A stretch of 64,000 nucleotides of DNA, taken from Tricholoma matsutake (lineage: Eukaryota > Basidiomycota > Agaricomycetes > Agaricales > Tricholomataceae). The translations under genes and the position numbers were made by a program. Numbering within the stretch: position 1 is the first letter of the stretch; every line of letters begins with the position of its first letter. Of the stretch, positions 497 to 64,000 are shown piece by piece. The DNA lies in assembly GCA_026075535.2 (NCBI GenBank), contig AP026538.1:16190337-16254336 (forward strand), in the 5' to 3' direction. The notes beneath the pieces are model-generated. The model was not told the origin of the DNA and made no database searches. It worked only from the letters and a program-made list of their open reading frames with translations.

Positions 497-708
497 AGGA
501 TCTATTCCCCACTCGCTACGCTCCTTGACTTGTTACAACCACCATAAATAGTGGTAAACACCTCTGCTCAACGTTGCAAGCGACGTCGACACTTCAATTT
601 TCGTCCGATTTTCGATCGGATTTCACCATCACGAACGCTCTCGGCGTCTCCAGGCCTACCCTGATTTGCTAAGAGATCCGTCCATCCGATCTCCGTGGAT
701 GCCCCGGT

Positions 709-725
709 CATTGTTTTTGACAATG
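709..725 (+). other. 5' UTR hairpin of E1 with compensatory change between subfamilies
   Basis: CATTGT (709-714), loop TTTTG, ACAATG (720-725). In E15 the same site reads CACTGT/ACAGTG (50302-50307 and 50313-50318), so one U-A pair is replaced by C-G. E7 has the U-G intermediate. E6, E9 and E13 carry a C-A mismatch here. A second stem about 100 nt upstream, TCCGAT/ATCGGA with a 5-nt loop, is kept in nearly all copies. Confidence 0.6.
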
Positions 726-1002
726 GCTGCTATCTGTCTCGTTCTCCTGGGCTTCGAGGATCCTGACTAGGTGAGTGTTGTTTATGAAAGAGTAGTCTGG
801 GTCCCTCTGGGGGCTTAGAGTGGGTGTGGGATGCCTGCTTCAACGCTCGCCCAAGTCGACACACTCGTTTAGTTGGGGGAGGTCTGGCTTAGGGAGAAGG
901 GACGTTATCACTGGATTGCTAGTTGTCTGGGAGGCTTCTAGCCTCCATGCTCTGTGAGTTTCTATTACTAGAGACATGCTACACTGACTACCCTCTGGAA
1001 TA

Positions 1003-1038
1003 CACCATCGTTAAAAGGGGCTGGGCGATGGTGCCCCC
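1003..1038 (+). other. Candidate H-type pseudoknot in the E1 5' UTR
   Basis: An 8-bp stem CACCATCG (1003-1010) / CGATGGTG (1026-1033) encloses GGGG (1017-1020), which can pair with CCCC (1034-1037) directly after the stem. That is the geometry of an H-type pseudoknot. The block is among the best conserved parts of the 5' UTR in E1, E4-E7 and E9-E15. E11 has a G-U pair in stem 1 (TGATGGTG) and E15 a terminal mismatch. Folding is inferred from sequence only. Confidence 0.5.
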
Positions 1039-1293
1039 TAGCGGCTAGGCTTACACCTCGGTGGCCGCTCCTCACCACTATCCCTCTACCTCCGGTGCTC
1101 ACTCCTCTGGGGTGTTATGACCCGGGTTCAATCTTCTCCCACCGGGCTACAGGATGTGCGGCCTGTTCCCCCCTCGGAGCGTTCAGAGGCAGTATCGGGT
1201 GGACCCGGAATAGAGATATGGGATCACCCGTTATCGATGGCACGCTACGTATTTTGATTCTTACCATCATCTACAAGCACTAACTTCCTCTCA

Positions 1294-2103
1294 ATGCCTA
1301 AACGGCGAACTAGAGACCATACACCACGTTGGGGTCTACACGACCCCTCCCTGATTACGGGCGACATCTATGACGATGATGTCCAAGACTACGACACCCG
1401 GTACGATCACGACGATCCGGGTGTAGCTACTGCCCTACGGGCAGTTAGAGATCTATGGGCTGGAGAGGACCTCTCCGACCCTGAGGATGACGAGGACTCT
1501 CTTGCTATGCAAGAGGCCCTCAATTACGCCGAGAGCAGCCCCAAGCTGGCCTCGAGGCAAACGATCGACCGTGTGCTGTGGGCGCAGGACGTCCATGTTG
1601 CACATAAACGATGGACTCGCAGTCTCGAACGCGAGGACATGTACACTCAGGAGCTCGGCATTGCTGAGCTCTTCTATCCGGAGGCATCCCCTGCCCCTTT
1701 ACCGCCTTTGCCCCCCATCCCTGAGCTGGTGGAGGACGAAGCGCCGTTATCTGTGAATGAGAGGCTGGAAATCGAAGCCACCTCTCATGCCATGCTACAC
1801 CAACTCGACGCGATGACCATGTTCATTGGTACCGTCCGTACATCCGCCGTTCCCCCTGCAGAGAGGAACGCATGGCGCCAAATGGCCTGGGAGTTATTCA
1901 CGACCACCTGGCGACTGTCTGAGACAATGTCGGCGGAACTAGCAGCCGTTCCGACACCTCTCGACCTCACGTCTCCGGCAGCCTTCCGGGCTTCCTATGC
2001 GGCGGTGCACACCGCTCAACCAGAGCCTCAATCTGGGGAACCCTCGTCCCCAGCACGGCGCCGTCATCCTCGAGGTCCTCGTGGACAGCAGCGCCGCAAC
2101 TAG
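1294..2103 (+). CDS. E-element protein, subfamily A (269 aa), function unknown
   Basis: I recognise no known family. N-terminal basic stretch MPKRRTR; acidic low-complexity segment near residues 60-70 (DPEDDEDS); conserved ELGIAELFYPE from residue 120; proline-rich PPIPELVEDE linker; probable helical domain at residues 160-240 containing FIGTVR, WRQMAWELFTTTWRLS and LDLTSPAAFRASY; arginine-rich tail RRRHPRGPRGQQRR. No membrane segment, zinc knuckle or catalytic motif is visible, and it does not resemble LINE ORF1. A role in binding the element RNA, suggested by the basic tail, is inference. The ATG at 1294 is chosen because every intact copy starts at the equivalent ATG, after a conserved TCTC(A/G)ATG context. 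Against E15, 26 of 64 codons (1813-2004 versus 51438-51629) differ, 16 of them synonymously. Confidence 0.8.
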   Translation: MPKRRTRDHTPRWGLHDPSLITGDIYDDDVQDYDTRYDHDDPGVATALRAVRDLWAGEDLSDPEDDEDSLAMQEALNYAESSPKLASRQTIDRVLWAQDVHVAHKRWTRSLEREDMYTQELGIAELFYPEASPAPLPPLPPIPELVEDEAPLSVNERLEIEATSHAMLHQLDAMTMFIGTVRTSAVPPAERNAWRQMAWELFTTTWRLSETMSAELAAVPTPLDLTSPAAFRASYAAVHTAQPEPQSGEPSSPARRRHPRGPRGQQRRN

Positions 2104-2106
2104 TAC

Positions 2107-2545
2107 AGGGGGCTATCCCCCTCTACGTTCACGGCCACCAAGTAACTGGTGGCCATTATCGGGATGGTGACATGGTGTCGCTTCCCTATACCTTCCCCCC
2201 ACTGCGGGGGGGACGATGTCATCGAGTGCATGCACATAGGTGCATTTGCTCGAGGGGGGTCTCGGCCCCCTACTTACGGCGGTCACGGTGAATAACCAGG
2301 TGAACAACCACCCGCCTTGTTACTGTCACTCGTGCACAACACGGTGATGGTCCACCTCATTCGTCTGGGGTGGTCAATCCTCGTTGGCTGGAAAAACGCA
2401 GACGGTTATTCCTCCCGCAAGGGGGGATTTACGGTGAATTAACACTGCTGCGCCTGGTCTGGCCTCGGTCGGACATGTGGCTGGGGGACCGTTTGCTCCA
2501 GGGGGCGATCTAATGGCTAACTTCGGGAGGGGGGGCGCCCCCTCC
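2107..2545 (+). other. Structured 3' UTR of E1: chain of hairpins
   Basis: Successive stems: AGGGGG 2107-2112 / CCCCCT 2117-2122; GGCCACCA 2133-2140 / TGGTGGCC 2147-2154; GTGACA 2167-2172 / TGTCGC 2176-2181; CCCCC 2196-2200 / GGGGG 2206-2210; AGGGGG 2253-2258 / CCCCCT 2266-2271; CCTCCC 2411-2416 with GCAA tetraloop / GGGGGG 2421-2426; GGAGGGGG 2526-2533 / CCCCCTCC 2538-2545. The same positions pair in the other subfamilies, often with different bases. No ORF with an ATG start explains this conservation. Confidence 0.7.
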
Positions 2546-2680
2546 AGATTATTGCCTTTCCTGGCTGAGAGGCCAACGTCTGTGGAACTGCCCGCCTAAA
2601 GGTGGCTAAAACGGGGACCTGAGTGGGATATGGGCGAGGGGAACGCGTAGATAAAGTAGTACCCAAGTTTGTACCTTGCT

Positions 2681-2720
2681 CCGCGGACTGCGTTCGAGCC
2701 CCGCGTTATAAATTCTGATC

Positions 2721-2758
<38 letters not shown>
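2681..2758 (+). other. E1 3' tail shared with the LINE, followed by poly(A)
   Basis: The block beginning CCGCGGACTGCG at 2681 and ending TTATAAATTCTGATCC precedes the poly(A). The corresponding 41 nt of E8 (24037-24077) and L2 (24198-24238, minus strand) match at 38 positions by hand count. In LINE/SINE pairs such a shared 3' end is the signal used by the LINE RT, so this is the likely recognition site. Confidence 0.75.
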
Positions 2759-2761
<3 letters not shown>

Positions 2762-2772
2762 CCCCACTCGCT

Positions 2773-3745
2773 TTTCCTCTCATCGCCTCACCTCCAAGGA
2801 GGATGGAGCGAGGAATTCTTACAGGGTGACCTCAACAAGGCCTGGGCCTCTGCCCAGGTAGAGGATGACACTCTCGTCGTTGCAGTGGACGCTTCAGTGC
2901 CCACAGATGCTAAATTTCAAGCTGTTGCCTGCACTCTTGTCTTCGGACAGGGAGAACAGGTAGATCGCGTTGTCTCAGCTTCTGGGAGGAGGACCCCCCC
3001 AGAAGTTGAACTATTTGCTCTCCAATTAGGTGTATCCTCTGCGTGCAGCAGGGGATGCAAAAAGTTGGTAATATTCTCAGATTCTACCACGGGCATCAAG
3101 TCCCTAATTGATCCAAAGCCATGTTCTGGGCAAATCTTTGCCCTGGACGCTTGTCGCTCTCTTTGCCCCTGGCTAGCTGGGGATGAGGAGAGAAACATTA
3201 TATTCTGGCATGTCCCCTCAAAATTCGAGTGGAACGTACACAAGAAGGCTCACGATGTAGCTACATCCACCAAGATCTCCGTGGGCAGACACCCGCGGAT
3301 GTCTTTAGACTACCTTAAAAATCAGGTCGAAAAGGCTGTTTGTAAGGATTGGGACACCCGGTTCTCAGATCTGGCGTATCGTGGTCAGCACTTCTACCAA
3401 CTCAAAGGAGTAGGCAGAAAACTGGTATTACCCTCGACTCACAAAGGTGGGCCTTGGCTGAAAGTAATGGGGAACAACACTACGTTGACTTCCCGTTCAA
3501 CTCGCATGATCACTGGCCATGCTCCTATAGGGGAGTATCATCATCGTCTCTCCCTCGACGGGGAGTACCAATGTTGGTGCCTTGGCCCCAAGATACAAAC
3601 TTGGGACCATTTGCTATGCATCTGCCATAAGGTGGATCGCAAAGATACTCATGCAAGCCCAGACTCCGTCGAAGGCTTCCACGAATTTATGGACAATAAC
3701 CCGGTCCTCGGGTCATTCAACTCACTTACGTGGGATCCAGGATAG
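2773..3745 (+). pseudogene. LINE L0 ORF2 fragment: RNase H and C-terminal zinc motif
   Basis: RNase H-like domain with the expected acidic residues: AVDASVPT, PEVELFALQLG, IFSDSTTGI and a late AHDVATS. It is followed by a cysteine/histidine cluster (CWCLGPK, DHLLCIC) typical of the C-terminus of LINEs with RNase H. It would remove the RNA strand after first-strand synthesis. The stop at 3743-3745 is the natural ORF2 end, matching L1 and L2. The N-terminal side is out of frame with the RT fragment (several indels around the E1 insertion), so this copy cannot make a whole ORF2. Confidence 0.75.
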
Positions 3746-4292
3746 GCTGTGCACGCAGGGTGTATGACCCCCGTCTGGTTCTGGCTAGTGTTATCGGTAT
3801 GTCGGGGTGGCTGCAGAGCACCAGATGAGTCCGTTAACCCTCATAAAGGGGGCCCACCCGTGTTCAGGAGCGACTGTCAGGGAGGGGGGACACAAAACTA
3901 GGTACTGGTTCGGGGAGGCGCCTGAGCGCTTCCAGATCCTCTGTTGGTTATGCGTAATGGCGACTCATTCGACTATGCTTTCCTTTCCGAGCTGAGAGGC
4001 TCACGTCGGGGTGGCAGTTTCCCCTAAATCTTGCACTCATACCCATAGGGATTCAGGGAACACGACATCGCCAAGTCTGGGTTGTCGGTATGCCACCACT
4101 GGCAAGTCCATTTACTTGATAAAGGGGGCCCCCTTAGTGGTCGTTGCAGCTATCCAGGTGGTTGGTGCGAAGATCAGCAGGAGGAGGACTTGGGCTGGGC
4201 GTAGTGTACCTCATTTGTATGTCTCTACCACAGACTGCAATCGGGCACCACATTATAAATCTTTGACCCAAAAGAAAAAAAAAAAAAAAAAA

Positions 4293-4415
4293 GTGCATTA
4301 TCACCACCATTGTCACTACTATCACTGGTCCCTCAAAGTACTGTTTGTGTATAGATTCTTTTATGAGAAGGGCCCATAGACATTTCCTTAGGTCATGTAC
4401 AGTGACTGTCACCGA
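4293..4415. other. Short unassigned flank between L0 and E2
   Basis: 123 bp with no resemblance to the E or L elements. It is probably the sequence into which L0 inserted. No gene is visible. Confidence 0.5.
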
Positions 4416-5222
4416 TTTTTTTTTTTTTTGGGTCAAAAATTTATAATGTGGGGCTCGAACACAGTCCGCGGAGCGGGGTACAAACTCGGGTACTACTCTA
4501 TCTATGCGTTCCCCTCACCCATCTCCCACCCAGGTCCCCATTTTAGCCACTTTAGGCGGGCAGTGCCACAGACATTGGCCTCTCAGCCAGGAAAGGCAAT
4601 AATCTGGAGGGGGAGCCCCCCCTCCCGAAGCTAGCCATTAGGTCGTCAGCTAGTGCGGAACGGTCCCCCAGCCACATATCCAACCGAAGTCAGATCAGGT
4701 GCGGCCGTGTTAATTCACTGTAAATCCCCCCTTGCAGGAGGAATAACCGTCCGCATGTTCCCAGCCAACGAGGGTTGACCACCCCAGGCAAATGAGGTGG
4801 ACCATCACTGTGCCTGCGCACAAGTGACGAAAATGAGGTAGCTGGTTATTCACCTGGTTACTCACTGGAACTACCGTAGGCAGGGGCCCAAGGCCCCCCT
4901 CGAGCAAGTGTCAAACCGTGCATGCGCTCGATGACAACGTCCCCCCCGCAGTGGGGAGAAGGTGTAGGGTAACGGCTAAGCGTCATTATCCTGATAACGG
5001 CCACCACTCCTGTGGTGGGCATATATGTGGAGGGGTGGTACCCTTTTCAGTAGCGACGCTGCTGTGCTCGAGGACCTCAAGGATGGCAGCGTCGTGATGG
5101 GGACGAGGGTTCCCCATGTTGGAGCTCTGCTTGAGCTGCCTGCCTAGCCGCATAGGAAGCCCTGAAGGCTGCCGGTGACATGAGATCAAGAGGCAACCTG
5201 GCAGCTGCTAGTTCTGCCGACA
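4416..5222 (-). mobile_element. E2, partial E element (3' part only)
   Basis: Reads on the minus strand from 5222 to the poly(T) at 4416-4429. It keeps the last ~58 codons of the ORF (5047-5222, stop at 5047-5049), the 3' UTR hairpins and the shared 3' tail. Its 5' half is absent: the sequence meets the poly(T) of E3 at 5223 and never resumes to the right. The ORF end resembles E11 most closely (subfamily C-like). Loss by deletion or recombination is inferred from the missing right half. Confidence 0.8.
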
Positions 5223-6670
5223 TTTTTTTTTTTTTTTGTTTTTTGGGTCAACAATTTATAACGCGGGGCTCGATCGCAGTCCGCGGAGCAGGATACAAAC
5301 TTGGGTACTACTGTAACTACGCTTCCCCTCCCCCATATCCTACCCAGGTCCTCGTTTTAGCCACTTTAGGCGGGCAGTGCCACAGACGTTGGCCTCTCAG
5401 CCAGGAAAGGCAATAATCTGGAGGGGGAGCCCCCCCTCCCGAAGCTAGCCATTAACTCGTCCACCAGTGCAGAACGGTCCCCCAGCCACATATCCAACCG
5501 AAGTCAGATCAGGCGCGGCCGTGTTAATTCACTGTAAATCCCCCCTTGCGGGAGGAATAACCGTCTGCATACTCCTGGCCAGCGAGGATTGACCACCCCA
5601 GACGAATGAGGTGGACCATCACCGCGCTCCCGCGCGAGTGACAGAGATGTGGTAGCTGGTTGTTCACCTGGTTATTCACCGGAACTACCGTGGATAGGGG
5701 GGCCAAGGCCCCCTTCGAGTAGATGCCGTCGAGGGCATACGCTCGGTAACAACGTCCCCCCCGCAGCGGGGAGAAGGTAGAGGGAAGCGACAAACTGTCA
5801 CTATCCCGACATCGGCCACCAACTAATTGGTGGGAGTAGATGTGGGGGGGTGACACCCCCCTTTCAGTAGCGGCGCTGCTGTGCTCGAGGACCTCGAGGA
5901 TGGCGGCGTCGTGATGAGGACGAGGGTTCCCCATGATGGAGCTCTGCATGAGCTGCCTGCCTAGCCGCGTAGGAAGCCCTGAAGGCTTCCGGTGACGTGA
6001 GGTCGAGAGGCAATCCGGCAGCTGCTAGTTCTGCCAACATTGGCTCGGACAATCGCCAGGTGGTCGTGAATAGTTCCCAGGCCATCTGACGCCATGCGTT
6101 CCTCTCAATGAGCGGAACGGCGGATACTCGGACGGTACCGACAAAAATCGTCATAGCCTCCAGTAAATGTAGAAAGCCATGAGAAGTGGACGTTATGTCC
6201 ACCCTCTCATCTCTCGACAACGGAGGCTCATCCTCCACCAACTCTGGGATGGCGGATGAACCCGGTGATGTGGGGAGGGGCGGCGCAGATTGCTCCTGCT
6301 GCCCCTCCGGATAGAGGAGCTCGGCGATGCCGAGCTCTTGATTGTTGTTGGCCTCGAGCCCAAGCTCGAGAGCCAGATCATGCACCTCATCGGCTATCAC
6401 TTGTGATGCCAAGAAGCGGTTTATCGTCTCCTGCGAGGCTAGCTCGGTGAGACCCAGGATGAATTCGACGTCTCCGCCTGTGGCAGAGCCGTCATCGTCG
6501 TCTGGCAGGTCGGAGGAGTCATCCTCCGCCCAAAGATTGTGGAACTGGTTAGCCACATCAGAGTCCCATCCGCTCAGGGAGACGTGTCCGAACTCTGGGA
6601 GGTAATTGTCGTCGAAGTCGGCGAAGTCGGCGATTGTGTATAGGAGGGGGTCGCCATGAGCCGCCTGGTG
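5223..6670 (-). mobile_element. E3, partial E element (subfamily C), lacks the 5' UTR
   Basis: Poly(T) at about 5223-5245 (broken by one G), shared tail, hairpin 3' UTR and nearly all of the ORF. The copy ends abruptly at 6670, eleven codons into the ORF, where the poly(T) of E4 begins. The missing 5' end is not found on the far side of E4, so the junction is a rearrangement and not a simple nested insertion. Confidence 0.8.
5864..6670 (-). pseudogene. E-element protein, subfamily C, N-terminally truncated (269 codons)
   Basis: Open from the junction at 6670 to the stop at 5864-5866, starting at HQAAHGDPL and so lacking the first 11 residues of the 280-residue subfamily C protein. It retains ELGIAELLYPE, the PELVEDE linker, FVGTVRVSAVP, the WRQMAWELFTTTW block and the basic tail. 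It still has CGA where E15 has a TGA stop (SSSSRRRHPRG). Expression is unlikely because ATG and leader are gone. Confidence 0.75.
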
Positions 6671-8923
6671 TTTTTTTTTTTTTTTTTTGGGGTCAACAAT
6701 TTATAACGCGGGGCTCGATCGCAGTCCGCGGGTCAAGATACAAACAAGGTACTACTAAGACTACGCATTCCCTATGTCCGCATCCCACACCAGGTCCCTT
6801 GCAGAAGCCACGTTATGGCGGGCGTACCAGCGTTGTCCTCTCAGACAGGAAAGGCAATAATCTGTAGGGGAGGGGCCCCCCCTACAAAGGCTAGCCGTTA
6901 GTTCGCCGTCTGGTGCTATCTCGGTCCCCCCGGCCACATACCCGACCGAAGTCAGATCAGGCGCAAGCAGTGTCAATTCACCGTAAGTCCTCCCTTGCGG
7001 GAAGAGTAACCGTCTTTCACCAGACAACGAGGATTGACCACCCCGGGTGAGTGAGGTGGACCATCACTGTGTCCACGCACAAGTGACAGTGACAAGGCAG
7101 CTGGTTATTCACCGGAACTGCCGTAGCTGGTTATTCACCGGAGCTACTGTAGGTAGGGGGTCGAGGCCCCCCCTCGAGCAAATGCTACTCTGAGCATGCA
7201 CTCGGTGACATCATCCCCCCCGCAGTGGGGGGAAGGTAAAGGGCAGCGACATAATGTCACCATCCCGACAACAGCCCTAGTGGGCGGTGAAGAGAAGGGG
7301 GGGTCCCCTTCTTCAAGCTCGGCGTGGACGTTGGCGGGGGCCACGAGGACGTCGACGCCGTTCCGGGGACAAGGGTTCCTCGGTTGGAGGCTCTGCCGCT
7401 GGTGGAGCAGACTGAGCCGCCTGCATCGCCGCATAGGAAGCCTGGAAGGCTGCCGGGGACGTAAGGTCGAGGGGAGCTGATGCCGCGCGAAGCGACTCCA
7501 TCATGCTCCCTGAAAATCGCCAGGTGGTGGTGAAGAGCTCCCACGCCATCTGACGCCAAGAGTTCCTGTCGTTGAGAGGAACTGCGGATACACGGACGGT
7601 ACCTACAAAGGAGGTCATCATGTCCAGTAGATGTAGCATGGCATCAGAGGTGGCTTCGATTTCCAACCTCTGATCCCTAGATAGTGGCACTTCGTCCTCC
7701 ACCAACTCGGGGATGGGGGGCCAAGGCGGTAACGGGGCAGGGGATGCCTCCGGATAAAGGAGCTCAGCGATACCGAGCTCCTGTGAATACATATCCTCCT
7801 TAGGGAGGCTACAAGCCCAGCGCTTGTGTTCGACGTCGACACCAAGTGCCCATCGTACACGATCGATCGTTTTCCTCGAGGAGAGCCTAGGCCCCCCCTC
7901 GGCGAAAGCGAGAGCCTCCTGCATGGCAAGAGAGTCATCATCATCATCATCGTTAGGGTCGGAGAGGTCTTCCCCGGCCCATAGATCTCTAGCTGCCCTA
8001 AAAGCAGCTGCTACCTCCGATTCGTCTTGGACGAACCGGGAGTCGTAGTCTTGGACGCCATCATCAAAGATGTCGCCCGTGATCAAAACGGGGTCACGTA
8101 GACCCCGATGTGGTGGTTGGTCTCTGGTTCGCCGTTTGGGCATCGAGAGTGTGTGTGTTAGTGCTAGTAGGTGATGGTAGGAATCAAAATACGTAGCGTG
8201 GAATCGATAACGACTGGTCCCTTATCTATATTCCGGGTCCATCCGACACAGCCTCCGAACGCTCCGAGGGGGCGAGCAAGCCGCACATCCTGCTGCCTAG
8301 TGGGAGAAGATTGAACCCGGGTCATGCCACCCTAGGAGAGTGAGCACCGGAGGTAGAGGGATGGTGGTGAGAAGCGGCCACCAAAGTGTAGGCCTAGCCG
8401 CTAGGGGGCACCATCGCCCGGCCCCTTTTAACGATGGTGTATTCCAACGGGTAGTCAGTGTAGCTTGTCCCTAGTAGTAGTGACTCACATAGCATGGAGG
8501 CTAGAAGCCTCCCAGACAACTAGCAATCCAGTGATAACGTCCCTTCTCCCTTAGCCAGACCTCCCCCAACTAAACGAGCGTGTCGACTTGGGCGAGCGTT
8601 GAAGCAGGCATCCCACACCCACTCTAAGCCCCCAGAGGGACCCAGACTACTCTTTCATAAACGACACTCACCTAGTCAGGATCCTCGAAGCCCAGGAGAG
8701 CGAGACAGATAGCAGCCATTGTCAAAAACAATGACCGGGGCATCCACGGAGATCGGATGGACGGATCTCTTAGCAAATCAGGGTAGGCCTGGAGACGCCG
8801 AGAGCATTCGTGATGGTGAAATCCGATCGAAAATCGGATGAAAATTGAAGTGTCGACGTCGCATGCAACGTTGAGCAGAGGTGTTTACCACTATTTATGG
8901 TGGTTGTAACAAGTCAAGGAGCG
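6671..8923 (-). mobile_element. E4, complete-length E element (subfamily B) without a matching target duplication
   Basis: Poly(T) at 6671-6688, shared tail, 3' UTR, ORF, 5' UTR and the 5' end at 8923. The left flank is E3 coding sequence (GCCGCCTGGTG) and the right flank is LINE ORF1 (ATGATAACCAGCG). The two do not match, although the other intact copies show 13-16 bp duplications. The simplest reading is recombination between one copy inserted in E3 and another inserted in L1 ORF1. Confidence 0.8.
7313..8143 (-). CDS. E-element protein, subfamily B (276 aa)
   Basis: Intact from ATG at 8143 to the stop at 7313. The protein appears identical to that of E8 (22625-23455), which sits in a different target, so this form was mobile recently. 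Subfamily B features: a run of six aspartates near residue 65, WALGVDVEHKRW in the middle, and an arginine-rich tail RRRRPRGPRQRPRR. The overall layout is as described for E1. Confidence 0.8.
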   Translation of the reverse strand: MPKRRTRDQPPHRGLRDPVLITGDIFDDGVQDYDSRFVQDESEVAAAFRAARDLWAGEDLSDPNDDDDDDSLAMQEALAFAEGGPRLSSRKTIDRVRWALGVDVEHKRWACSLPKEDMYSQELGIAELLYPEASPAPLPPWPPIPELVEDEVPLSRDQRLEIEATSDAMLHLLDMMTSFVGTVRVSAVPLNDRNSWRQMAWELFTTTWRFSGSMMESLRAASAPLDLTSPAAFQASYAAMQAAQSAPPAAEPPTEEPLSPERRRRPRGPRQRPRRA

Positions 8924-10793: not shown

Positions 10794-13020
10794 TTTTTTT
10801 TTTTTTTTTTTTTTGGATCAGAATTTATAACGCGGGGCTCGAACGCAGTCCGCGGAGCAAGGTACAAACTTGGGTACTACTTTATCTACGCGTTCCCCTC
10901 GCCCATATCCCACTCAGGTCCCCGTTTTAGCCACCTTTAGGCGGGCAGTTCCACAGACGTTGGCCTCTCAGCCAGGAAAGGCAATAATCTGGAGGGGGCG
11001 CCCCCCCCTCCCGAAGTTAGCCATTAGATCGCCCCCTGGAGCAAACGGTCCCCCAGCCACATGTCCGACCGAGGCCAGACCAGGCGCAGCAGTGTTAATT
11101 CACCGTAAATCCCCCCTTGCGGGAGGAATAACCGTTTGCGTTTTTCCAGCCAACGAGGATTGACCACCCCAGATGAATGAGGTGGACCATCACCGTGTTG
11201 TGCACGAGTGACAGTAACAAGGCGGGTGGTTGTTCACCTGGTTATTCACCGTGACCGCCGTAAGTAGGGGGCCAAGACCCCCCTCGAGCAAATGCACCCA
11301 TGTGCACGCACTCGATGACATCGTCCCCCCCGCAGTGGGGGGAAGGTATAGGGAAGCGACACCATGTCACCATCCCGATAGTGGCCACCAGTTACTTGGT
11401 GGCCGTGAACGTAGAGGGGGATAGCCCCCTGTACTAGTTGCGGCGCTGCTGTCCACGAGGACCTCGAGGACGACGGCGCCGTGCTGGGGACGAGGGTTCC
11501 CCAGATTGAGGCTCTGATTGAGCGGTGTGCACCGCCGCATAGGAAGCCCGGAAGGCTGCCGGAGACGTGAGGTCGAGAGGTGTCGGAACGGCTGCTAGTT
11601 CCGCCGACATCGTCTCAGACAGTCGCCAGGTGGTCGTGAATAACTCCCAGGCCATTTGGCGCCAAGCGTTCCTCTCTGCAGGGGGAACGGCGGACGTACG
11701 GACGGTACCAATGAACATGGTCATCGCGTCGAGTTGGTGTAGCATGGCATGAGAGGTGGCTTCGATTTCCAGCCTCTCATTCACAGATAACGGCACTTCG
11801 TCCTCCACCAGCTCAGGGATGGGGGGCAAAGGCGGTAGCGGGGCAGGGGATGCCTCCGGATAGAAGAGCTCAGCAATGCCGAGCTCCTGAGTGTACATGT
11901 CCTCGCGTTCGAGACTGCGAGTCCATCGTTTATGTGCAACATGGACGTCCTGCGCCCACAGCACACGGTCGATCGTTTGCCTCGAGGCTAGCTTGGGGCT
12001 GCTCTCAGCATAATCGAGGGCCTCCTGCATAGCAAGAGAATCCTCGTCATCCTCAGGGTCGGAGAGGTCTTCTCCAGCCCATAGATCTCTAACTGCCCGT
12101 AGGGCAGTAGCTACATCCGGATCGTCATGATCGTACCGGGTGTCGTAGTCTTGGACGCCATCATCATAGATGTCGCCCGTAATCAGGGAGGGGTCGTGTA
12201 GACCCCAGCGTGGTGTTTGCGCTCTAGTTCGCCGTTTAGGCATTGAGAGGGGAAGTTAGTGCTAGTAGGTGATGGTAGAAATCAAGATACGTAGCGTGCC
12301 ATCGATAACAGCTGGCCCCTTATCTCTATTCCGGGTCCACCCGATACTGCCTCCGAACGCTCCGAGGGGGGGACAGGCCGCACATCCTGTAACCCAGTGG
12401 GAGAAGATTGAACCCGGGTCATACCACCCTAGAAGAGTGAGCACCGGAGGTAGAGAGTTGGTGGAGAGTGGCGGCCACCAAGGTGTCGACCTAGCCGCCA
12501 GGGGGCACCATCGCCCGGCCCCTTTTAACGATGGTGTATTCCAACGGGTAGTCAGTGTAGCTTGTCCCTAGTAGTAGTGACTCACATAGCATGGAGGCTA
12601 GAAGCCTCCCAGACAACTAGCAATCCAGTGATAATGTCCCTTCTCCCTAAGCCAGACCTCCCCCAACTAAACGAGTGTGTCGACTTGGGCGAGCGTTGAA
12701 GCAGGCATCCCACACCCACTCTAAGCCCCCAGAGGGACCCAGACTACTCTTTCATAAACGACACTCACCTAGTCAGGATCCTCGAAGCCCAGGAGAGCGA
12801 GACAGATAGCAGCCATTGTCAAAAACAATGACCGGGGCATCCACGGAGATCGGATGGACGGATCTCTTAGCAAATCAGGGTAGGCCTGGAGACGCCGAGA
12901 GCGTTCGTGATGGTGAAATCCGATCGAAAATCGGACGAAAATTGAAGTGTCGACGTCGCATGCAACGTTGAGCAGAGGTGTTTACCACTATTTATGGTGG
13001 TTGTAACAAGTCAAGGAGCG
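10794..13020 (-). mobile_element. E5, complete E element (subfamily A) inserted in L1 ORF1
   Basis: Poly(T) at 10794-10814, 5' end at 13020. The target duplication is AAGCTCACTATGA at 10781-10793 and AAGCTCGCTATGA at 13024-13036, with one mismatch. A few bases (13021-13023) lie between the element end and the right-hand duplication. The insertion splits the end of ORF1. Confidence 0.9.
11434..12243 (-). CDS. E-element protein, subfamily A (269 aa)
   Basis: Intact ORF from ATG at 12243 to the stop at 11434. It differs from E1 at only a handful of residues (for example RAQ for RDH near residue 7, SEP for PEP near residue 245). It is oriented against the LINE genes it interrupts. Confidence 0.8.
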   Translation of the reverse strand: MPKRRTRAQTPRWGLHDPSLITGDIYDDGVQDYDTRYDHDDPDVATALRAVRDLWAGEDLSDPEDDEDSLAMQEALDYAESSPKLASRQTIDRVLWAQDVHVAHKRWTRSLEREDMYTQELGIAELFYPEASPAPLPPLPPIPELVEDEVPLSVNERLEIEATSHAMLHQLDAMTMFIGTVRTSAVPPAERNAWRQMAWELFTTTWRLSETMSAELAAVPTPLDLTSPAAFRASYAAVHTAQSEPQSGEPSSPARRRRPRGPRGQQRRN

Positions 13021-13250: not shown

Positions 13251-15510
13251 CAGCGCTCCTTGACTTGTTACAACCACTATAAACAGTGGTAAACACCTCT
13301 GCTCAACGTTGCCAGCGACGTCGACACTTCAATTTACGTCCGATTTTCGATCGGATTTCACCATCACGAACGCTCTCGGCGTCTCCAGGTCTACCCTGAT
13401 TTGCTAAGAGATCCGTCCATCCGATCTCCGTGGATGCCCCGGTCATCGTTTTTGACAATGGCCGCTATTCGTCTCGGTCTCCTGGGCTTCGAGGATCCTG
13501 GTTAGGTGAGTGCTGGCAATGAAAGAGTAGTCTGGGCCCCTATGGGAGCTCAGAGTGGGTGTGGGATGCCTACTTCAATGCTCGCCCAAGTCGTCGCATT
13601 CGTTTAGCTGGGGGAGGTCTGGTTCAGGAGGAGGGACATATCCACTGGATTGTGGGTCGTCTGGGAGACTTCCTACCTCCATGCTGTGTGAGTTTCTACA
13701 TCTAGAGACCTGCTACACTGACTACCTATTGGAATACACCATCGTTAAAAGGGGCCGGGCGATGGTGCCCCCTGGTGGCTAGGTCGACGCCCTGGTGGCC
13801 ACTATTCACCACCGACTCTTTACCTCCGGCACTCACACCCTTGAGGTGTTTGGAACCGGGTTCAATCGTCCCTCCCTATCGGCAGCAGGATTTGCGGCCT
13901 GCCTGCCCCCTCGGAGCGTCTGGAGGCTGTGTCGGGTGGACCCGGAATTGAGATAAGGGACCGTCTGTTACCGTTATCACGCTACGTATCTTGACTTCTA
14001 CCGTCATCTACTTGCACTAATACACACACTCTCAATGCCCAAACGGCGAACTAGAGGCCAACCACCACATCGGGGTCTACGCGACCCCGTTTTGATCACG
14101 GGCGACATCTTTGATGATGACGTCCAAGACTACGACACCCGATTCGTGCAAGACGAATCGGAGGTAGCAGCTGCTTTCAAGGCAGCTAGAGATCTATGGG
14201 CCGGGGAAGACCTCTCCGACCCTAACGATGATGACGACGACGAGTCTCTTGCCATGCAAGAAGCTCTTCTTTTTGCCGAGGGGGGGCCTAGGCTTTCCTC
14301 GAGGAAAACGATCGATCGTGTACGATGGGCACTTGGTGTCGACGTCGAACACAAGCGCTGGGTTCGTAGCCTCCCGAAGGAGGATATATATTCACAGGAG
14401 CTCGGTATCGCTGAGCTCCTTTATCCGGAGGCATCCACTGCCCCACCACCGCCTTGGCCCCCCATCCCTGAGTTGGTGGAGGACGAAGTGCCGTTATCTA
14501 GGGATCAGAGGCTGGAAATCGAAGCCACCTCTGATGCCATGTTACATTTACTGGACATGATGACCTCCTTTGTAGGTACTGTCCGTGTGTCCGCGGTTCC
14601 TCTCAACGACAGGAACTCTTGGTGTCAGATGGCATGGGAGCTCTTCACCACCACCTGGCGATTCTCAGGGAGCATGATGGAGTCGCTTCGCGCGGCATCG
14701 GCTCCCCTCGACCTTACGTCTCCGGCAGCCTTCCAGGCTTCCTATGCGGCGATGCAGGCGGCTCAGTCTGCCCCACCAGCGGCAGAGCCTCCAACCGAGG
14801 AACCCTTGTCCTCGGAACAGCGTCGACGTCCTCGTGGCCCCCGCCAACGACCACGCCGAGCTTGAAGAAGGGGACCTCCCCTTCTCTTCACCGCCCACCA
14901 GGGCTGTTGTCGGGATGGCGACAATATGTCGCCGCCCTTTACCTTCCCCCCACTGCGGGGGGGATGATGTCACCGAGTGCATGCTCAGAGTAGCATTTGC
15001 TCGAGGGGGGGGCTTCGACCCCCCACCTACAGTAACTCCGGTGAATAACCAGTTACGGCAGTTCCGGTGAATAACCAGCTGCCTCGTCACTGTCACTTGT
15101 GCGTCGACACAGTGACGGTCCACCTCACTCACCTGGGGTGGTCAATCCTCGTTGTCTGGTGAAAGACGGTTACTCTTCCCGCAAGGGAGGATTTACGGTG
15201 AATTGACACTGCTTGCGCCTGATCTGACTTCGGTCGGATATGTGGCCGGGGGGACCGAGATAGCACCAGACGGCGAACTAACGGCTAGCCTTTGTGGGGG
15301 GGGCCCCTCCCCTACAGATTATTGCCTTTCCTGTCTGAGAGGACAACGCTGGTACGCCCGCCGTAACGTGGCTTCTGCAAGGGACCTGGTGTGGGATGCG
15401 GGCATAGGGAATGCGTAGTCTCAGTAGTACCTTGTTTGTATCTTGACCCGCGGACTGCGATCGAGCCCCGCGTTATAAATTGTTGACCCCAAAAAAAAAA
15501 AAAAAAAAAA
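13251..15510 (+). mobile_element. E6, complete E element (subfamily B) inserted in the L1 endonuclease region
   Basis: Target duplication AGAGCCTCCTTGGCGA (16 bp) at 13235-13250 and 15511-15526. Poly(A) at 15491-15510. The 5' junction reads CAG before the conserved CGCTCCTTGAC, three bases not explained by the duplication. The insertion falls just after the FIQEPPW motif of the LINE endonuclease. Confidence 0.92.
14035..14865 (+). CDS. E-element protein, subfamily B (276 aa)
   Basis: Intact. The protein differs from the one in E13 at only two or three positions although the targets differ, so the two copies separated recently. It carries NSWCQMAW where most copies have NSWRQMAW, a CpG-type C to T change of the arginine codon. 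A strong hairpin, GAAGGGG 14867-14873 / CCCCTTC 14878-14884, starts within two bases of the stop codon. Confidence 0.8.
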   Translation: MPKRRTRGQPPHRGLRDPVLITGDIFDDDVQDYDTRFVQDESEVAAAFKAARDLWAGEDLSDPNDDDDDESLAMQEALLFAEGGPRLSSRKTIDRVRWALGVDVEHKRWVRSLPKEDIYSQELGIAELLYPEASTAPPPPWPPIPELVEDEVPLSRDQRLEIEATSDAMLHLLDMMTSFVGTVRVSAVPLNDRNSWCQMAWELFTTTWRFSGSMMESLRAASAPLDLTSPAAFQASYAAMQAAQSAPPAAEPPTEEPLSSEQRRRPRGPRQRPRRA

Positions 15511-24093: not shown

Positions 24094-24166
24094 ATCTAGA
24101 ATGCTCAGATTGACTACTCAATCTGAAGCAGCATTGTAGGACCCATCAAGGGCAGCCCAGAGGGAA

Positions 24167-37919: not shown

Positions 37920-38231
37920 CACTGACTACCCATTGGAATACACCATCGTTAAAAGGGGCTGGGTGATGGTGCCCCCTGACAGCTAGGTCGATGCTCTGGT
38001 GGCCGCTACTCACCCCCAACTTCTCACCTCTGGTGCTCACTCCTTCAGGGTGGTATGACCCGGGTTCGATCTTCTCCCACTCGACAGCAGGATGTGCGGC
38101 CTGTCTGTCCCCTTGGAGCAATTGGAGGCTATATTGGGTGGATCTGGAATTGAGATAAGGGACCATCTGTTATCATTATCACACTACGTATCTTGACTTC
38201 TACCATCATCTACTTTGCTAAATCATCCTCA

Positions 38232-42809: not shown

Positions 42810-43335
42810 ACTCCCCAACCCCTCAGTACAAGGTTGGTGATTGAGTTTATCTTGACTCCAGTGACGTCTCCACTACACGTCCATCCAAGAAACTCACTCA
42901 TCACTTCTTGGGACCTTTCCTCATTGTCAAGTGTGTTGGAATGCATGCCTATTGTCTATGCCTCCCAGCCTCCATATCCAGACTCCATCCCATCTTCCAT
43001 GTTGTCAAATTGCTTCCAGCTCCCCCAGATCTGTTCCCGGGACGCCATTCACACCCACCACCACCACCTACAGTGATCGAGGGAGAACCCCCATACGAAG
43101 TCGAGTCAATCTTGGACAGCCATTTGCATCGAGGAAAACTCCAGTATTTGGTACATTGAAAGGGTTATGGGTATGAGGAGAACTCATGGGTCGAAGAGTC
43201 TGACATAAATGCCCCTCGGTTAATCAAGGAATTCCACTGATGGCACACTGCTGCACCGCGTCGCATTCAAGTCATGGACTTTGGTCATATGCAATTTCGA
43301 ATGCATCGGGGTGATGCATCTTAGAGAGGGGGTGA

Positions 43336-47573: not shown

Positions 47574-47767
47574 ATCCATGGTCATCCGAGTACCATCCAA
47601 AAATGTATTGAGGGCGCGCTCCATGGATTCGGTGTGCTGAGAAGACATGATAAAACTCTTTGTACTTAGGGTGGATGCAGTTGATAGTGTCAATAAATGC
47701 AATGTCAGTTTCAACTTCCATATTCAAAATTCACGTGACCACATTTGTTGATCAATTTTTGCATCTT

Positions 47768-50106: not shown

Positions 50107-52366
50107 CATCAAGCTCCTTGACTTGTTACAACCACCATAAATAGTGGTAAACACCTCTGCTCAACGTTGCACGCGACGTCGACACCTCAATTTTGGTCCG
50201 ATTTTCGATCGGATTTCGCCTTCACGAACGCTCTCGGCGACTCCAGGCTTGCCCTGATTTGCTAAGAGATCCGTCCATCCGATCTCTGTGGATGCCCCGG
50301 TCACTGTTTTTGACAGTGTCTGCTATTCGTCTCGCTCTCCTGGGCTTCGAGGATCCTGGTTAGGTGAGTGTTGGCAATGAAAGAGTAGTCTGGGCCCCTA
50401 TGGGGGCTTAGAGTGGGTGTGGGATGCCTACTTCAACGCTCGCCCAAGTCGTCGCATTCGTTTAGCTGGGGGAGGTCTGGTTCAGGAGGAGGGACATATT
50501 CACTGGATTGTGGGTCGTCTGGGAGGCTTCCTACCTCCATGCTGCGTGAGTTTCTATCTCTAGAGACCTGCTACACTGACTACCCATTGGAATACACCAT
50601 CATTAAAAGGGGCCGGGCGATGGTGCCCCCTGGTGGCTAGGTCAATGCTCTGGTGGCCGCTACTTACCACCGACTCTTTACCTCCGGCACTCACACCCTC
50701 GAGGTGTTCGGAACCGGGTTCAATTGTCCCTCCCAATCTGCAGCAGGATTTGCGGCCTGCCTGCCCCCTCGGAGCGTCTGGAGGCTGTGTCGGGTGGACC
50801 CGGAATTGAGATAAGGGACCGTCTGTTATCGTTAACATGCTACGTATCTTGACTTTTACCGTCATCTACTTGTGCTAAATCATCCTCAATGCCCTCTACA
50901 AACCGTAGAGCGCGAACTCGACACCAGGCGGCTCATGGCGACCCCCTCCTATACACAAACGCCGACTTCGCCGACTTCGACAACAATTACCTCCCAGAGT
51001 TCGGACACGTCTCCCTGAGCGGATGGGACTCTGATGTGGCTAACCAGTTCCACAATCTTTGGGCGGAGGATGACTCCTCCGACCTGCCAGACGACGATGA
51101 CGGCTCTGCCACAGGCGGAGACGTCGAATTCATCCCGGGTCTCACCGAGCTAGCCTTGCAGGAGACGATAAACCGCTTCTTGGCATCACAAGTGATAGCC
51201 GATGAGGTGCATGATCTGGCTCTCGAGCTTGGGCTCGAGGCCAACAACAATCAAGAGCTCGGCATCGCCGAGCTCCTCTATCCGGAGGGGCAGCAGGAGC
51301 AATCTGCGCCGCCCCTCCCCACATCACCGGGTTCATCCGCCATCCCAGAGTTGGTGGAGGATGAGCCTCCGTTGTCGAGAGATGAGAGGGTGGACATAAC
51401 GTCCACTTCTCATGGCTTTCTACATTTACTGGAGGCTATGACGATTTTTGTCGGTACCGTCCGAGTATCCGCCGTTCCGCTCATTGAGAGGAACGCATGG
51501 CGTCAGATGGCCTGGGAACTATTCACGACCACCTGGCGATTGTCCGAGCCAATGTCGGCAGAACTAGCAGCTGCCGGATTGCCTCTCGACCTCACGTCAC
51601 CGGAAGCCTTCAGGGCTTCCTACGCGGCTAGGCAGGCAGCTCATGCAGAGCTCCATCATGGGGAACCCTCGTCCTCATCATGACGCCGCCATCCTCGAGG
51701 TCCTCGAGCACAGCAGCGCCGCTACTGAAAGGGGGGTGTCACCCCCCCACATCTACTCCCACCAATTAGTTGGTGGCCGATGTCGGGATAGTGACAGTTT
51801 GTCGCTTCCCTCTACCTTCTCCCCGCTGCGGGGGGGACGTTGTTACCGAGCGTATGCCCTCGACGGCATCTACTCGAAGGGGGCCTTGGCCCCCCTATCC
51901 ACGGTAGTTCCGGTGAATAACCAGGTGAACAACCAGCTACCACATCTCTGTCACTCGCGCGGGAGCGCGGTGATGGTCCACCTCATTCGTCTGGGGTGGT
52001 CAATCCTCGCTGGCCAGGAGTATGCAGACGGTTATTCCTCCCGCAAGGGGGGATTTACAGTGAATTAACACGGCCGCGCCTGATCTGACTTCGGTTGGAT
52101 ATGTGGCTGGGGGACCGTTCTGCACTGGTGGACGAGTTAATGGCTAGCTTCGGGAGGGGGGGCTCCCCCTCCAGATTATTGCCTTTCCTGGCTGAGAGGC
52201 CAACGTCTGTGGCACTGCCCGCCTAAAGTGGCTAAAACGAGGACCTGGGTAGGATATGGGGGAGGGGAAGCGTAGTTACAGTAGTACCCAAGTTTGTATC
52301 CTGCTCCGCGGACTGCGATCGAGCCCCGCGTTATAAATTGTTGACCCAAAAAAAAAAAAAAAAAAA
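50107..52366 (+). mobile_element. E15, complete E element (subfamily C)
   Basis: Target duplication AGAAAGCAGGAGTAA (15 bp) at 50092-50106 and 52367-52381. Six extra bases (CATCAA) lie between the left duplication and GCTCCTTGAC. Poly(A) ends at 52366. 3' UTR stems: GGGGGGT 51731-51737 / ACCCCCC 51741-51747, CCACCAA 51759-51765 / TTGGTGG 51770-51776, GGAGGGGG 52153-52160 / CCCCCTCC 52165-52172. The target is not a LINE. Confidence 0.92.
50889..51728 (+). pseudogene. E-element protein, subfamily C, with late TGA
   Basis: Open from ATG 50889 to TGA at 51681-51683, 264 codons. The frame then continues unbroken through the basic tail to the family stop at 51726-51728 (279 residues). E3 has CGA at the premature stop, so only the arginine-rich tail would be lost. 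Otherwise complete and close to E12. Confidence 0.75.
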
Positions 52367-52381
52367 AGAAAGCAGGAGTAA

Positions 52382-54157: not shown

Positions 54158-54188
54158 GGAGGGGACGCGACCCCACTGTTGTCTGTCG

Positions 54189-61608: not shown

Positions 61609-61728
61609 TGTGGCATTACTCAATGACATGGCCTACCTTACTCTTTTTCATCTATGTAGCTAGGACCAACATTGTTATTTTAGTTAGGATGAACACTGTT
61701 TTTTTTGCTGGATCTAACCCATTAATAT

Positions 61729-63059
61729 TAGTGTTTGAAGGTCTGTTTCATGCAACCAGAAAAAAACCAAAACTGAACCAAACCAAACTGCAGTTTGGTT
61801 GTTTTGCAGTTGTGGTTGCCCTCATTTACTCATCCCATTGGTTACAGTTGCATTGATTTGAATAATTATTGAAAGTCGATTAAAACTGGTTCTAACCAAG
61901 GTCGGTCTACCTACTATACTTGATCTAAGTACATATAGTTTAGTTATAATCAAATGTAGTAATAACTAAAATAACAAAATACTGGGACATTCCCAAGAAA
62001 TATAAACATGAAAAGCAAGGGTTTATATACCTTGAGGCTGTGCATGGACCATTGGTCATGTTTGCACTCCCAAACAAAAAAAGTGGTGCCACTTGTTCAC
62101 CATTCCCATGGCTGCCAAACCAACAATGCATCCATCAAAACTACCACCTGCCACCAATGCTCTGCCTCCTTCCACCACCACCGCTTTGTCAATGCCCACC
62201 ACTACTCCCACATCCCCTGCAAACAAACCACATTGGGCCCAGATGACAACAATTGTCATTTGGTCCCTAGGTAATGTTTTTTAAAGTTGTTCTTTGAACT
62301 AACTAATATCTTCTTTTTCTTTGTTAGATTCTAACTATATTGTAACCATGAAATGGCGCCAAGACGGCACCCCCTGCTCGCAGGGTGATAATGGGTCCTG
62401 TTCCCACTGACAACAACTGGAGATGGGTGGTGGATGATGGCGCCAATGCTGGATGACGAGGGGAGTGGACGACGACATGGCCGATGAAGACCAGACAACA
62501 ACAATTGCAAGTGACAATGCCAATGCCAGCACCAGCGCCAACACCAATGCCAATGCCAACACCAGCAACAACACCAGTGACAATGCCAACACCAGCAACA
62601 ACGCCATCGCCAACGCCGGAACAATGCCAACAAAGACGCAAATGCCAGACAACAAGCACAATGCCTGCAGATTCCCCCTCACTCCAAATGTAGGAGTTTT
62701 TTTTTCTATCTTTCTGCTTTGTGCTCGCTGACCCTATTTTCCCAGTTCTTTTTTAATTTATCATCCACATGCTCACTTGCAGGCTCCTGCCTGCAAGGGG
62801 CTTTATTTTACTTTAGAATATTATTAGTATAACTATAATTATGTAGATAATGTCAGTTTAGACTGATGCAAGTCAGTCGAAGACTGGTTGTGGTCGAACC
62901 GACTACAACCAGTAGTCAGGCTGAACTGGACTGCACACAACCAACTATGTGCGGTCCAGTTCAGTTTTATTTAGTTTTTGAATGTAATTGAACTGGTTAC
63001 AGTTCCAGTTCCATCCCAAAATGGAAAAAAACCAGACTGAGCCGGACCTTCAAACACTA
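61729..63059. mobile_element. hAT-like non-autonomous DNA transposon with 8-bp target duplication
   Basis: Terminal inverted repeats TAGTGTTTGAAGGTC (61729-61743) and GACCTTCAAACACTA (63045-63059) are perfect. ATTAATAT duplicates at 61721-61728 and 63060-63067. An 8-bp duplication and this TIR form fit the hAT superfamily. The 1.33 kb interior has no transposase. It contains a 20-bp palindrome at 61781-61800, a CAATGCCAACACCAGCAAC-type simple repeat (62515-62625), and CTGAACTGGACTGCACA (62921-62937) opposite TGTGCGGTCCAGTTCAG (62948-62964). Confidence 0.8.
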
Positions 63060-63235
63060 ATTAATATTGCCCATACTCATTGTCCATCTTGTTTGCCAAA
63101 CAGTGCATATGTGCTCACAATATATGGAGTCAATCCAATGACAACTGATTGGTATTCAGCTTCTGTGCCCTCTTCCCCTGTCAAACAAGGTCTTTATACT
63201 CCCCCCCCCCCAATCTGATTGGACTCCACTCAGAC

Positions 63236-63342
63236 ACTCAGACAGTCCAAGGACAGTCCTAGGACTTTGCTTGGACTTTTTTGGCTGAAAGTTCTGCCAA
63301 ACCAGATGTCCAGTCCAAGCTGAGTCCTTGGACTGTCCGAGT
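63236..63342. repeat. Fold-back repeat of 107 bp
   Basis: ACTCAGACAGTCCAAGGAC (63236-63254) faces GTCCTTGGACTGTCCGAGT (63324-63342), an inverted repeat of 19 bp with one mismatch. No clear target duplication. It could be a tiny MITE. Confidence 0.6.
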
Positions 63343-63370
63343 TGCTTATATAATTGACTAAAAAAATCTG

Positions 63371-63452
63371 TGGCTACCACAGGGATTGAACCCTCGTAGT
63401 CACATGATAAAGTACAATTAAGGCAACAATATAACCATTAGACTAAAGCATC
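63371..63452 (-). repeat. tRNA-derived SINE-like head
   Basis: On the minus strand TAGTCTAATGG fits an A box and AGGGTTCAATCCCTG is a near-ideal B box and T arm, about 40-50 nt apart. The acceptor arm (CTGTGGTAGCCACAG side) does not pair with the 5' side. This is the best tRNA-like fold of the three heads. Confidence 0.5.
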
Positions 63453-63467
63453 ATTACAGGTACATAG

Positions 63468-64000
63468 TTTTTTTTTTTTTTTTTTTTTTTTTTTGGGTCA
63501 ACAATTTATAACGCGGGGCTCGATCGCAGTCCGCGGAGCAGGATACAAACTTGGGTACTACTATAACTACGCTTCCCCTCACCCATATCCTACCCAGGTC
63601 CTCGTTTTAGCCACTTTAGGCGGGCAGTGCCACAGACGTTGGCCTCTCAGCCAGGAAAGGCAATAATCTGGAGGAGGAGACCCCCTCCTGAAGCTAGCCA
63701 TTAGATCGTCAGCTGGTGCGAAGCGGTCCCCCAGCCACATATCCAACCGAAGTCAGATCAGGCGCGGCCGTGTTAATTCACTGTAAATCCCCCCTTGCGG
63801 GAGGAATAACCGTCCGCATACTCCCAGCCAATGAGGATTGACCACCCCGGATGAACGAGGTGGACCATCACCGTGTCATGCACGAGTAACAGTAATGTGG
63901 CAGCTGGTTGTTCACCTGGTTATTCACCGGAACCGCCGTAAGCAGGGGGCCAAAGCCCCCCTCGAGCAAATGCACTGCAAGCACATGCACTCGATAGCAA
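63468..64000 (-). mobile_element. E16, E element running off the right edge
   Basis: Poly(T) at 63468-63494, then shared tail and 3' UTR in the same order as the other copies, including the GCAA-loop hairpin. The window ends before the ORF. It most resembles E7 (GCGAAGCGGTCCCC and following). Its target duplication cannot be checked. Confidence 0.85.

What the first reader, a model, noticed from the sequence alone, without database searches (positions are those of the whole stretch)
518..64000. A LINE-dependent short retroelement family that encodes its own conserved protein
Sixteen copies (E1-E16) share one design: 5' end (C)GCTCCTTGACTTG, ~780-nt leader, one ORF of 269-280 codons, ~620-nt structured 3' UTR, poly(A), and 13-16 bp target duplications. 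There is no RT or endonuclease. SINEs are normally non-coding, and known ORF-only derivatives such as HAL1 keep a LINE ORF1. This protein does not resemble the LINE ORF1 here (no zinc knuckle) or any family I know. I infer a parasite of the LINE that brings its own protein.
Basis: partly seen in the sequence, partly recalled or inferred. Interest (0 to 1): 0.88.

Follow-up and report, generated by a model that had tools for sequence, protein, structure and literature searches.

The report
LINE-tailed retroelement with its own protein
In the probable centromeres of the matsutake mushroom, a 2.2-kb jumping element that has no copying enzyme seems to borrow that of a neighbouring element by carrying the same ends, yet it keeps a conserved protein of its own; the element itself was probably catalogued in 2001 under another name, but this arrangement is unusual.

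Summary
The window lies in Tricholoma matsutake chromosome 1, in a GC- and LINE-rich block that others proposed as a centromere. It holds 16 E 3' ends; 11 copies are complete (2.2 kb, poly(A); exact 13-17 bp target duplications in 9), each with one ORF (269-280 codons in ten, 264 in one). This is the mark of an element copied in trans by that LINE. The ORF is under purifying selection (dN/dS 0.14-0.38) and large indels between its three subfamilies keep the frame. No RT was seen in the copies examined. The protein has no useful match in Pfam, NCBIfam or PDB sequences; comparison with the LINE ORF1 is inconclusive, and both predicted models are of low confidence. E is very probably marY2N (described 2001 as LINE-like); a 97% identical protein sits in UniProt as 'CzcA-like protein'. 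So the element is probably not new; an RT-less, protein-coding LINE partner concentrated in centromeric blocks is a new variant of a known kind, closest in logic to Drosophila HeT-A.

The parts
518..2759 (+). E copy, complete, subfamily B; poly(A) to about 2759; ORF 1294-2103 (269 aa); target duplication ATTCCCCACTCGCT
4416..5224 (-). E fragment (3' part)
5223..6356 (-). E fragment (3' half)
6671..8923 (-). E copy, complete, subfamily C; ORF 7313-8143 (276 aa); no target duplication found
10794..13020 (-). E copy, complete, subfamily B; ORF 11434-12243 (269 aa); 14-bp duplication with one mismatch
13254..15511 (+). E copy, complete, subfamily C; ORF 14035-14865 (276 aa); 17-bp duplication
17340..19199 (-). 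E copy with internal deletion (two BLAST pieces 19199-18194 and 18094-17340)
21844..24094 (+). E copy, complete, subfamily C; ORF 22625-23455 (276 aa); 13-bp duplication
25655..27910 (+). E copy, complete, subfamily C, inside the LINE copy 24199-35176; ORF 26437-27267 (276 aa); 15-bp duplication
29624..31877 (-). E copy, complete, subfamily C, inside the same LINE; ORF 30267-31097 (276 aa); 14-bp duplication
35185..39701 (+). E copy split by the nested copy 35660-37918 (pieces 35185-35658 and 37920-39701)
35660..37918 (-). E copy, complete, subfamily A, nested in another E; ORF 36300-37142 (280 aa, P0002); 15-bp duplication
40558..42810 (+). E copy, complete, subfamily C; ORF 41339-42169 (276 aa); 14-15 bp duplication
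45352..47574 (+). E copy, complete, subfamily B; ORF 46129-46938 (269 aa); 14-bp duplication
50113..52371 (+). E copy, complete, subfamily A; ORF 50889-51683 ends early (264 aa); 15-bp duplication
63468..64000 (-). E 3' part, cut by the window edge
24199..35176 (-). Partner LINE, read here as one copy interrupted by two E copies: 5' end about 35176, ORF1 pieces 34428-35051 and 33129-34385 (zinc knuckles), EN 31845-33128, RT 27823-29598, 3' end 24199
24199..24269 (-). LINE 3' tail shared with E
21539..21612 (+). second LINE 3' tail shared with E
3723..4270 (+). third LINE 3' UTR in the window, tail decayed

Best explanation
E is a non-autonomous, protein-coding non-LTR retroelement that uses the RT-endonuclease of the neighbouring two-ORF LINE. 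Shown from sequence: E and LINE have nearly the same first ~18 nt and share the last ~66 nt before poly(A) at 78% identity, including a likely hairpin; E inserts end in poly(A), are mostly 5'-complete in this window, and most complete ones have 13-17 bp duplications; the ~280-aa ORF is under purifying selection across three subfamilies; the listed E and LINE matches lie in the same compact block or blocks of every chromosome. Inferred: a polyadenylated RNA starts at the shared 5' motif, is translated to the E protein (acidic N-terminal half, helical core, arginine-rich tail), and is copied in trans by LINE ORF2p, which recognises the shared 3' hairpin and poly(A), at sites nicked by the LINE endonuclease. 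The most likely job of the E protein is a Gag/ORF1p-like one, acting on its own RNA; this step rests only on selection, the basic tail and the absence of any other gene in the element. The element is very probably marY2N.
For: Shared 3' tail: LINE ends ...CCGCGGACTGCGATCGGGCGCCGCGTTATAAATTTTTGACCC(A)n and E ends ...CCGCGGACTGCGATCGAGCCCCGCGTTATAAATTGTTGACCC(A)n; mean E-LINE identity 77.7% (65-85%) over the tail in 130 pairs of 13 LINE and 10 E rows, out of 16 and 18 distinct tails; hairpin paired in 94.4% of cells against 20-62% when slid. Shared 5' end CGCT(C/T)CTTG(A/T)CTTGTTAC. Exact target duplications in 35 of 40 rows, 34 of 39 distinct copies. dN/dS 0.14 within C, 0.21 within B, 0.24-0.38 between subfamilies with dS 0.65-1.65; alignment gaps of 15 or more columns are 15 or 21 long. 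Genome counts, all with up to 3 mismatches and 0 in the reversed-pattern control: E 5' ends 1252, LINE 5' ends 382, tails by an E-tail pattern that also admits LINE tails 1340. EN, RT and RNase H lie on the LINE.
Against: No expression or mobilisation data. The 5' match is short, and LINE subgroups differ from E by one or two bases in it. Hairpin measures are not all strong against shuffles (percentage paired 26, further pair types 80 of 500), and the double changes can come from CpG decay on both arms. That the E protein acts in E's own spread is not shown. No LINE target duplication could be measured for comparison. 45 of 139 best E protein matches hold in-frame stops.
Confidence: 0.72

Rival explanations
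1. E is a HAL1-like derivative: its protein is a strongly diverged N-terminal part of the LINE ORF1, with the LINE's own termini kept.
For: Shared 5' and 3' termini. hhalign of all E against the LINE ORF1 N-region aligned an 18-column basic RxPRG-like tail, and none of 60 column shuffles reached that score.
Against: Best probability 4.4%, 0.9% with the shallower LINE profile; the E core against the ORF1 N-region was reached by 5 of 60 shuffles; BLASTP of two members gave E 0.025 for that single comparison, on E residues 77-115, outside the conserved core. I saw no zinc knuckle in E.
Confidence: 0.2
2. E is a host gene that became a retrogene family copied by the LINE by chance, without needing its protein.
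For: mRNA-like design with leader, ORF, 3' UTR and poly(A).
Against: LINE termini are built in at both ends; purifying selection persists across subfamilies with dS above 0.6; the protein searches gave only T. matsutake E-type proteins and two unnamed ENA fragments (10 hits among 5647 scored candidates; 12 among 7997). A source gene with introns in this genome was not excluded, because only the best matches are scored.
Confidence: 0.07
3. The E protein serves the LINE or the centromere as well (mutual partner), as HeT-A Gag serves TART, so 'parasite' is the wrong word.
For: Listed E and LINE matches share 14 compact stretches; by the two 5' patterns E outnumbers the LINE about 3 to 1; HeT-A precedent (PMC5537684, passages).
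Against: The LINE has its own ORF1; co-location follows from use of the same machinery.
Confidence: 0.22
4. Chance or assembly artefact.
For: None found.
Against: Zero matches in the reversed-pattern controls of five searches with four longer patterns and 4 against 1101 for the 13-mer; database records of the same protein from other T. matsutake sequences.
Confidence: 0.01

Closest known systems
marY2N of Tricholoma section Caligata (Murata et al. 2001, AB047280)
   Same: LINE-like non-LTR element resembling an mRNA with poly(A) tail, so far exclusive to the section, and proposed as enriched in centromeric regions of T. bakamatsutake (PMC10627285, passages and the Introduction); a 279-aa T. 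matsutake UniProt protein, Q9C4A5, is 97% identical to an E protein.
   Different: The 2001 paper is not held, so the identity is not proved; the held paper calls it a LINE, whereas E lacks RT and depends on a separate LINE.
HeT-A of Drosophila
   Same: Non-LTR element without pol that encodes its own Gag, presumably copied by another element's RT, and confined to one chromosomal domain (PMC5537684, passages).
   Different: Telomeric and end-added; E inserts internally with target duplications in putative centromeres, and its protein is not recognisably Gag.
HAL1 (half L1)
   Same: RT-less LINE-related element with a single ORF.
   Different: HAL1 encodes ORF1p of L1 (PMC5753468, passages); E's protein shows no convincing ORF1 homology here.
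SINE/LINE pairs with shared 3' tail ('stringent' type)
   Same: Common 3' tail with stem-loop, taken as the basis of trans mobilisation (PMC3747384, passages).
   Different: SINEs are normally non-coding and Pol III-derived (recalled, and PMC6022598 passages); E is 2.2 kb, codes for a protein and also shares the LINE 5' end.
Eg-R1/ROPIP1 and EKA of Blumeria
   Same: Fungal non-LTR-related elements with an ORF; Eg-R1 is described as probably non-autonomous and Pol II-transcribed (PMC6022598, passages; EKA: PMC4641428, search listing only).
   Different: ROPIP1 is a 74-aa peptide with a proposed effector role; EKA derives from LINE ORF1; Eg-R1 inserts lack genomic poly(A).
Celine, centromeric LINE of poplar
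   Same: LINE colonising centromeres (PMC11288735, search listing only).
   Different: A LINE; no coding non-autonomous partner is mentioned in what I saw.

Membership tests
SINE | non-coding body of tRNA, 7SL or 5S origin with Pol III promoter | tested here: not met
   conserved ORF; no tRNA in the window; no significant Rfam match in the one copy scanned, lowest E 0.35. Pol III boxes were not scanned for.
SINE/LINE pair of the stringent type | 3' tail shared with a partner LINE | tested here: met
HAL1-type ORF1-only LINE derivative | ORF homologous to the LINE ORF1 | tested here: inconclusive
   no convincing homology, profiles shallow; low-confidence models
HAL1-type ORF1-only LINE derivative | LINE termini kept | tested here: met
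autonomous LINE | own RT and endonuclease | tested here: not met
   40 both-ended copies of 2204-2241 bp; no Pfam match in three E proteins at E up to 1
marY2N | sequence of AB047280 | not testable with these tools
   the 2001 paper is not held and no tool here gave the GenBank record; indirect: Q9C4A5, 97% identity
HeT-A-like division of labour | no RT, own conserved protein, partner element with RT in the same domain | tested here: met
HeT-A-like division of labour | own protein directs targeting to the chromosomal domain | not testable with these tools
   needs localisation data
CzcA-like heavy-metal efflux protein (database name of the E protein) | match to a known efflux-pump family | tested here: not met
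   no Pfam match for P0001-P0003 at E up to 1; in NCBIfam only one unrelated match, E 0.19, for P0003

The most novel reading that the evidence does not exclude
E and the LINE form a two-element centromere-building system: the E protein packages E RNA and carries the complex to centromeric chromatin, while the LINE supplies EN-RT, so that targeting and enzyme come from different elements, a centromeric counterpart of HeT-A and TART. The E protein would then be a new, lineage-specific Gag-like family.
Probability: 0.2. Interest if true: 0.86.

Novelty: new variant of a known kind. Interest (0 to 1): 0.62.

Why it matters
LINE-dependent elements are normally non-coding or carry a piece of the LINE's own ORF1. 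An element that keeps LINE ends yet maintains its own, apparently unrelated protein under selection raises a testable question: what can a protein do for an RNA that is copied by someone else's enzyme? Because both elements fill putative centromeres on every chromosome, it also gives a natural system to ask how retroelements find and build centromeres in mushrooms, and, if E is marY2N, it would correct the description of marY2N as a LINE.
Full report
What the window is. The window is contig 1, 16.19-16.25 Mb. That paper reports one GC-rich, LINE-rich region per chromosome, two on chromosome 1, and suggests that they are centromeres. The protein searches list 139 E matches (1747 candidates, 138 scored), 150 LINE ORF1 matches (600 candidates, 150 scored) and 150 subfamily-B matches (1466 candidates, 150 scored). 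By my reading of the listed coordinates they lie in 14 compact stretches on the 13 contigs, two on contig 1, that add up to about 8 Mb, about 5% of the genome. The lists are capped at the best matches. Of the roughly 100 listed places of the E 5' 13-mer (1101 in all) one, at contig 1 11.92 Mb, lies outside the two contig 1 stretches. Of 40 LINE 3' UTR matches one lies outside, at contig 10, 5.46 Mb.

The observation. Sixteen E 3' ends and 13 E 5' ends are in the window. Eleven copies are complete. All 11 carry the ORF, 10 at full length. In all, 40 both-ended rows were measured: 11 window copies, 28 from loci L009-L038 (one of them, L009, is a window copy again), and one from L071. Of the 30 loci L009-L038, two (L022, L037) did not align as one piece and hold other E pieces. 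Of the 40 rows 36 have an ORF of 269-280 codons, one has 264 and three are broken early. The 28 loci copies were chosen by protein score, so their intactness is biased upward; the window copies are not. In one search I count 94 of 139 matches without in-frame stops and 45 with one or more, again among the best matches.

LINE dependence. The partner LINE has an ORF1 of 640 aa with zinc-knuckle-like cysteine motifs (no Pfam match; the motif is read by eye) and an ORF2 with endonuclease, RT and RNase H. LINE 3' ends in held sequences (16 distinct tails) and E 3' ends (18 distinct) share the last ~66 nt before poly(A); in the 13 LINE and 10 E rows that I gave to the mean identity is 77.7%, range 65-85%, over 130 pairs. 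The shared part contains a five-pair hairpin with a two-pair inner helix: 94.4% of cells pair, against 20-62% when the partner is slid; three pairs have a both-sided change, and 9 of 500 shuffles reach that; for percentage paired it is 26, for further pair types 80, for the covariation score 18 of 500. Those changes are CpG-type and could be decay, so I treat the hairpin as likely, not proved. The whole 3' UTR of one copy is more stable than 20 of 20 shuffles. The 5' ends agree over CGCT(C/T)CTTG(A/T)CTTGTTAC and then part. E inserts have poly(A), and exact target duplications of 13-17 bp in 35 of 40 rows; 34 of those 35 duplications begin with A, which may be shared with the poly(A).

Abundance and completeness. 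E 5' ends number 1252 (up to 3 mismatches in 30), LINE 5' ends 382 (up to 3 in 27; more diverged LINE subfamilies may be missed). Tails of E type number 631 and of LINE type 249 at up to 1 mismatch in 34; at up to 3 mismatches the E-tail pattern gives 1340, which includes LINE tails because these differ by two bases. The tail is rich in CpG and decays, so the comparison is rough; still, E has about as many 5' ends as there are tails found, and in the window 13 5' ends stand against 16 3' ends, one of them cut by the window edge. Most E insertions therefore seem to be 5'-complete; this is unusual for LINE-type copying as I know it (recalled).

The protein. Three subfamilies, A (280 aa), B (269) and C (276), share a 104-aa core without gaps. 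dN/dS: within C 0.14 (21 pairs), within B 0.21 (3 pairs), within A 0.18 (325 pairs, biased by the choice of loci), A-B 0.38, A-C 0.24, B-C 0.28, from 36 coding sequences of at least 264 codons. Gaps of 15 or more columns between subfamilies are all 15 or 21 long. The leaders of one A and one C representative are 94% identical although the first 360 nt of their ORFs are 47% identical, which suggests exchange of leaders between subfamilies by recombination or template switching. The first 180 nt are 87-98% identical between the three representatives, in 60-column steps. Protein searches returned only Tricholoma matsutake proteins and two unnamed ENA sequences (10 hits among 5647 candidates; 12 among 7997). 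One hit, Q9C4A5, is named 'CzcA-like protein'; no efflux family matched.

Relation to LINE ORF1. With nine LINE rows hhalign gave 0.9% probability; with ten LINE-family N-regions, including unnamed JGI and ENA relatives, it gave 4.4%, aligning only a basic RxPRG-like tail. None of 60 column shuffles reached that score, but for the core alone 5 of 60 did. I count this as inconclusive. The predicted models are too weak to compare.

What is known. The held literature names marY2N as a LINE that resembles an mRNA with poly(A) tail, so far exclusive to Tricholoma section Caligata, and reports marY2N-rich regions, proposed as centromeric, on at least 10 of 13 T. bakamatsutake chromosomes (PMC10627285, passages and Introduction). 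Its primary paper is not held. I searched the library for T. matsutake with retrotransposon, marY2N, megB1 with Tricholoma, AB047280, Q9C4A5 or CzcA-like protein, retroelement with Tricholoma and Murata, ORF1-only LINE derivatives and centromeric nonautonomous elements; in the listings and passages that I saw, none describes an RT-less protein-coding partner of a LINE in Tricholoma. That is a statement about this open-access library only. HeT-A lacks pol, and its Gag is reported as needed for telomere targeting (PMC5537684, passages). [quoted passage not shown]

Judgement. The element is real, abundant and probably already named. Its classification as a protein-coding, LINE-dependent element with LINE termini, concentrated in putative centromere blocks, is the new part. 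Confidence 0.72 in trans mobilisation by this LINE with a conserved own protein; the protein's role is inference.

Noticed in passing
L078:4785-4917 (contig 12, 9,912,785-9,912,917): The right telomere of contig 12 (TTAGGG repeats) starts directly inside the 3' UTR of an E element, so the putative centromeric block reaches the chromosome end; it looks like a broken end healed by telomere addition.
   Followed up: partly
L009-L038 and window 5' junctions; L042-L068: Between the target duplication and CGCT of E there are often a few extra bases such as CAT, CGT, CGA, CATCAT or CGTCGT; LINE 5' ends also often follow CAT. Unexplained; could be start-site heterogeneity or a junction repeat.
   Followed up: partly
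L071:4757-4758, L072:5059-5060, window 33128-33129: The LINE ORF2 start codon directly follows the ORF1 stop codon, which suggests termination-reinitiation.
   Followed up: no
window 35176-35185: An E copy (+) and the LINE copy (-) lie head to head with under 10 bp between their 5' ends.
   Followed up: no
window 8923-8933: An E copy (-) abuts a LINE leader in the other orientation and has no matching target duplication, so this junction is probably rearranged.
   Followed up: no
G000 contig 1:11,920,359 and contig 10:5,456,175: Rare outliers of the E 5' 13-mer and of the LINE 3' UTR outside the compact stretches.
   Followed up: no
window 39700-40540 and 43745-45289: A retroelement integrase-like stretch (my reading, not searched) next to E, and a 514-aa ORF with a cysteine cluster and no Pfam match above its curated cut-off.
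   Followed up: no
E matches: In-frame stops in decayed E copies are mostly TGA, with some TAG and few TAA, consistent with C-to-T decay.
   Followed up: no
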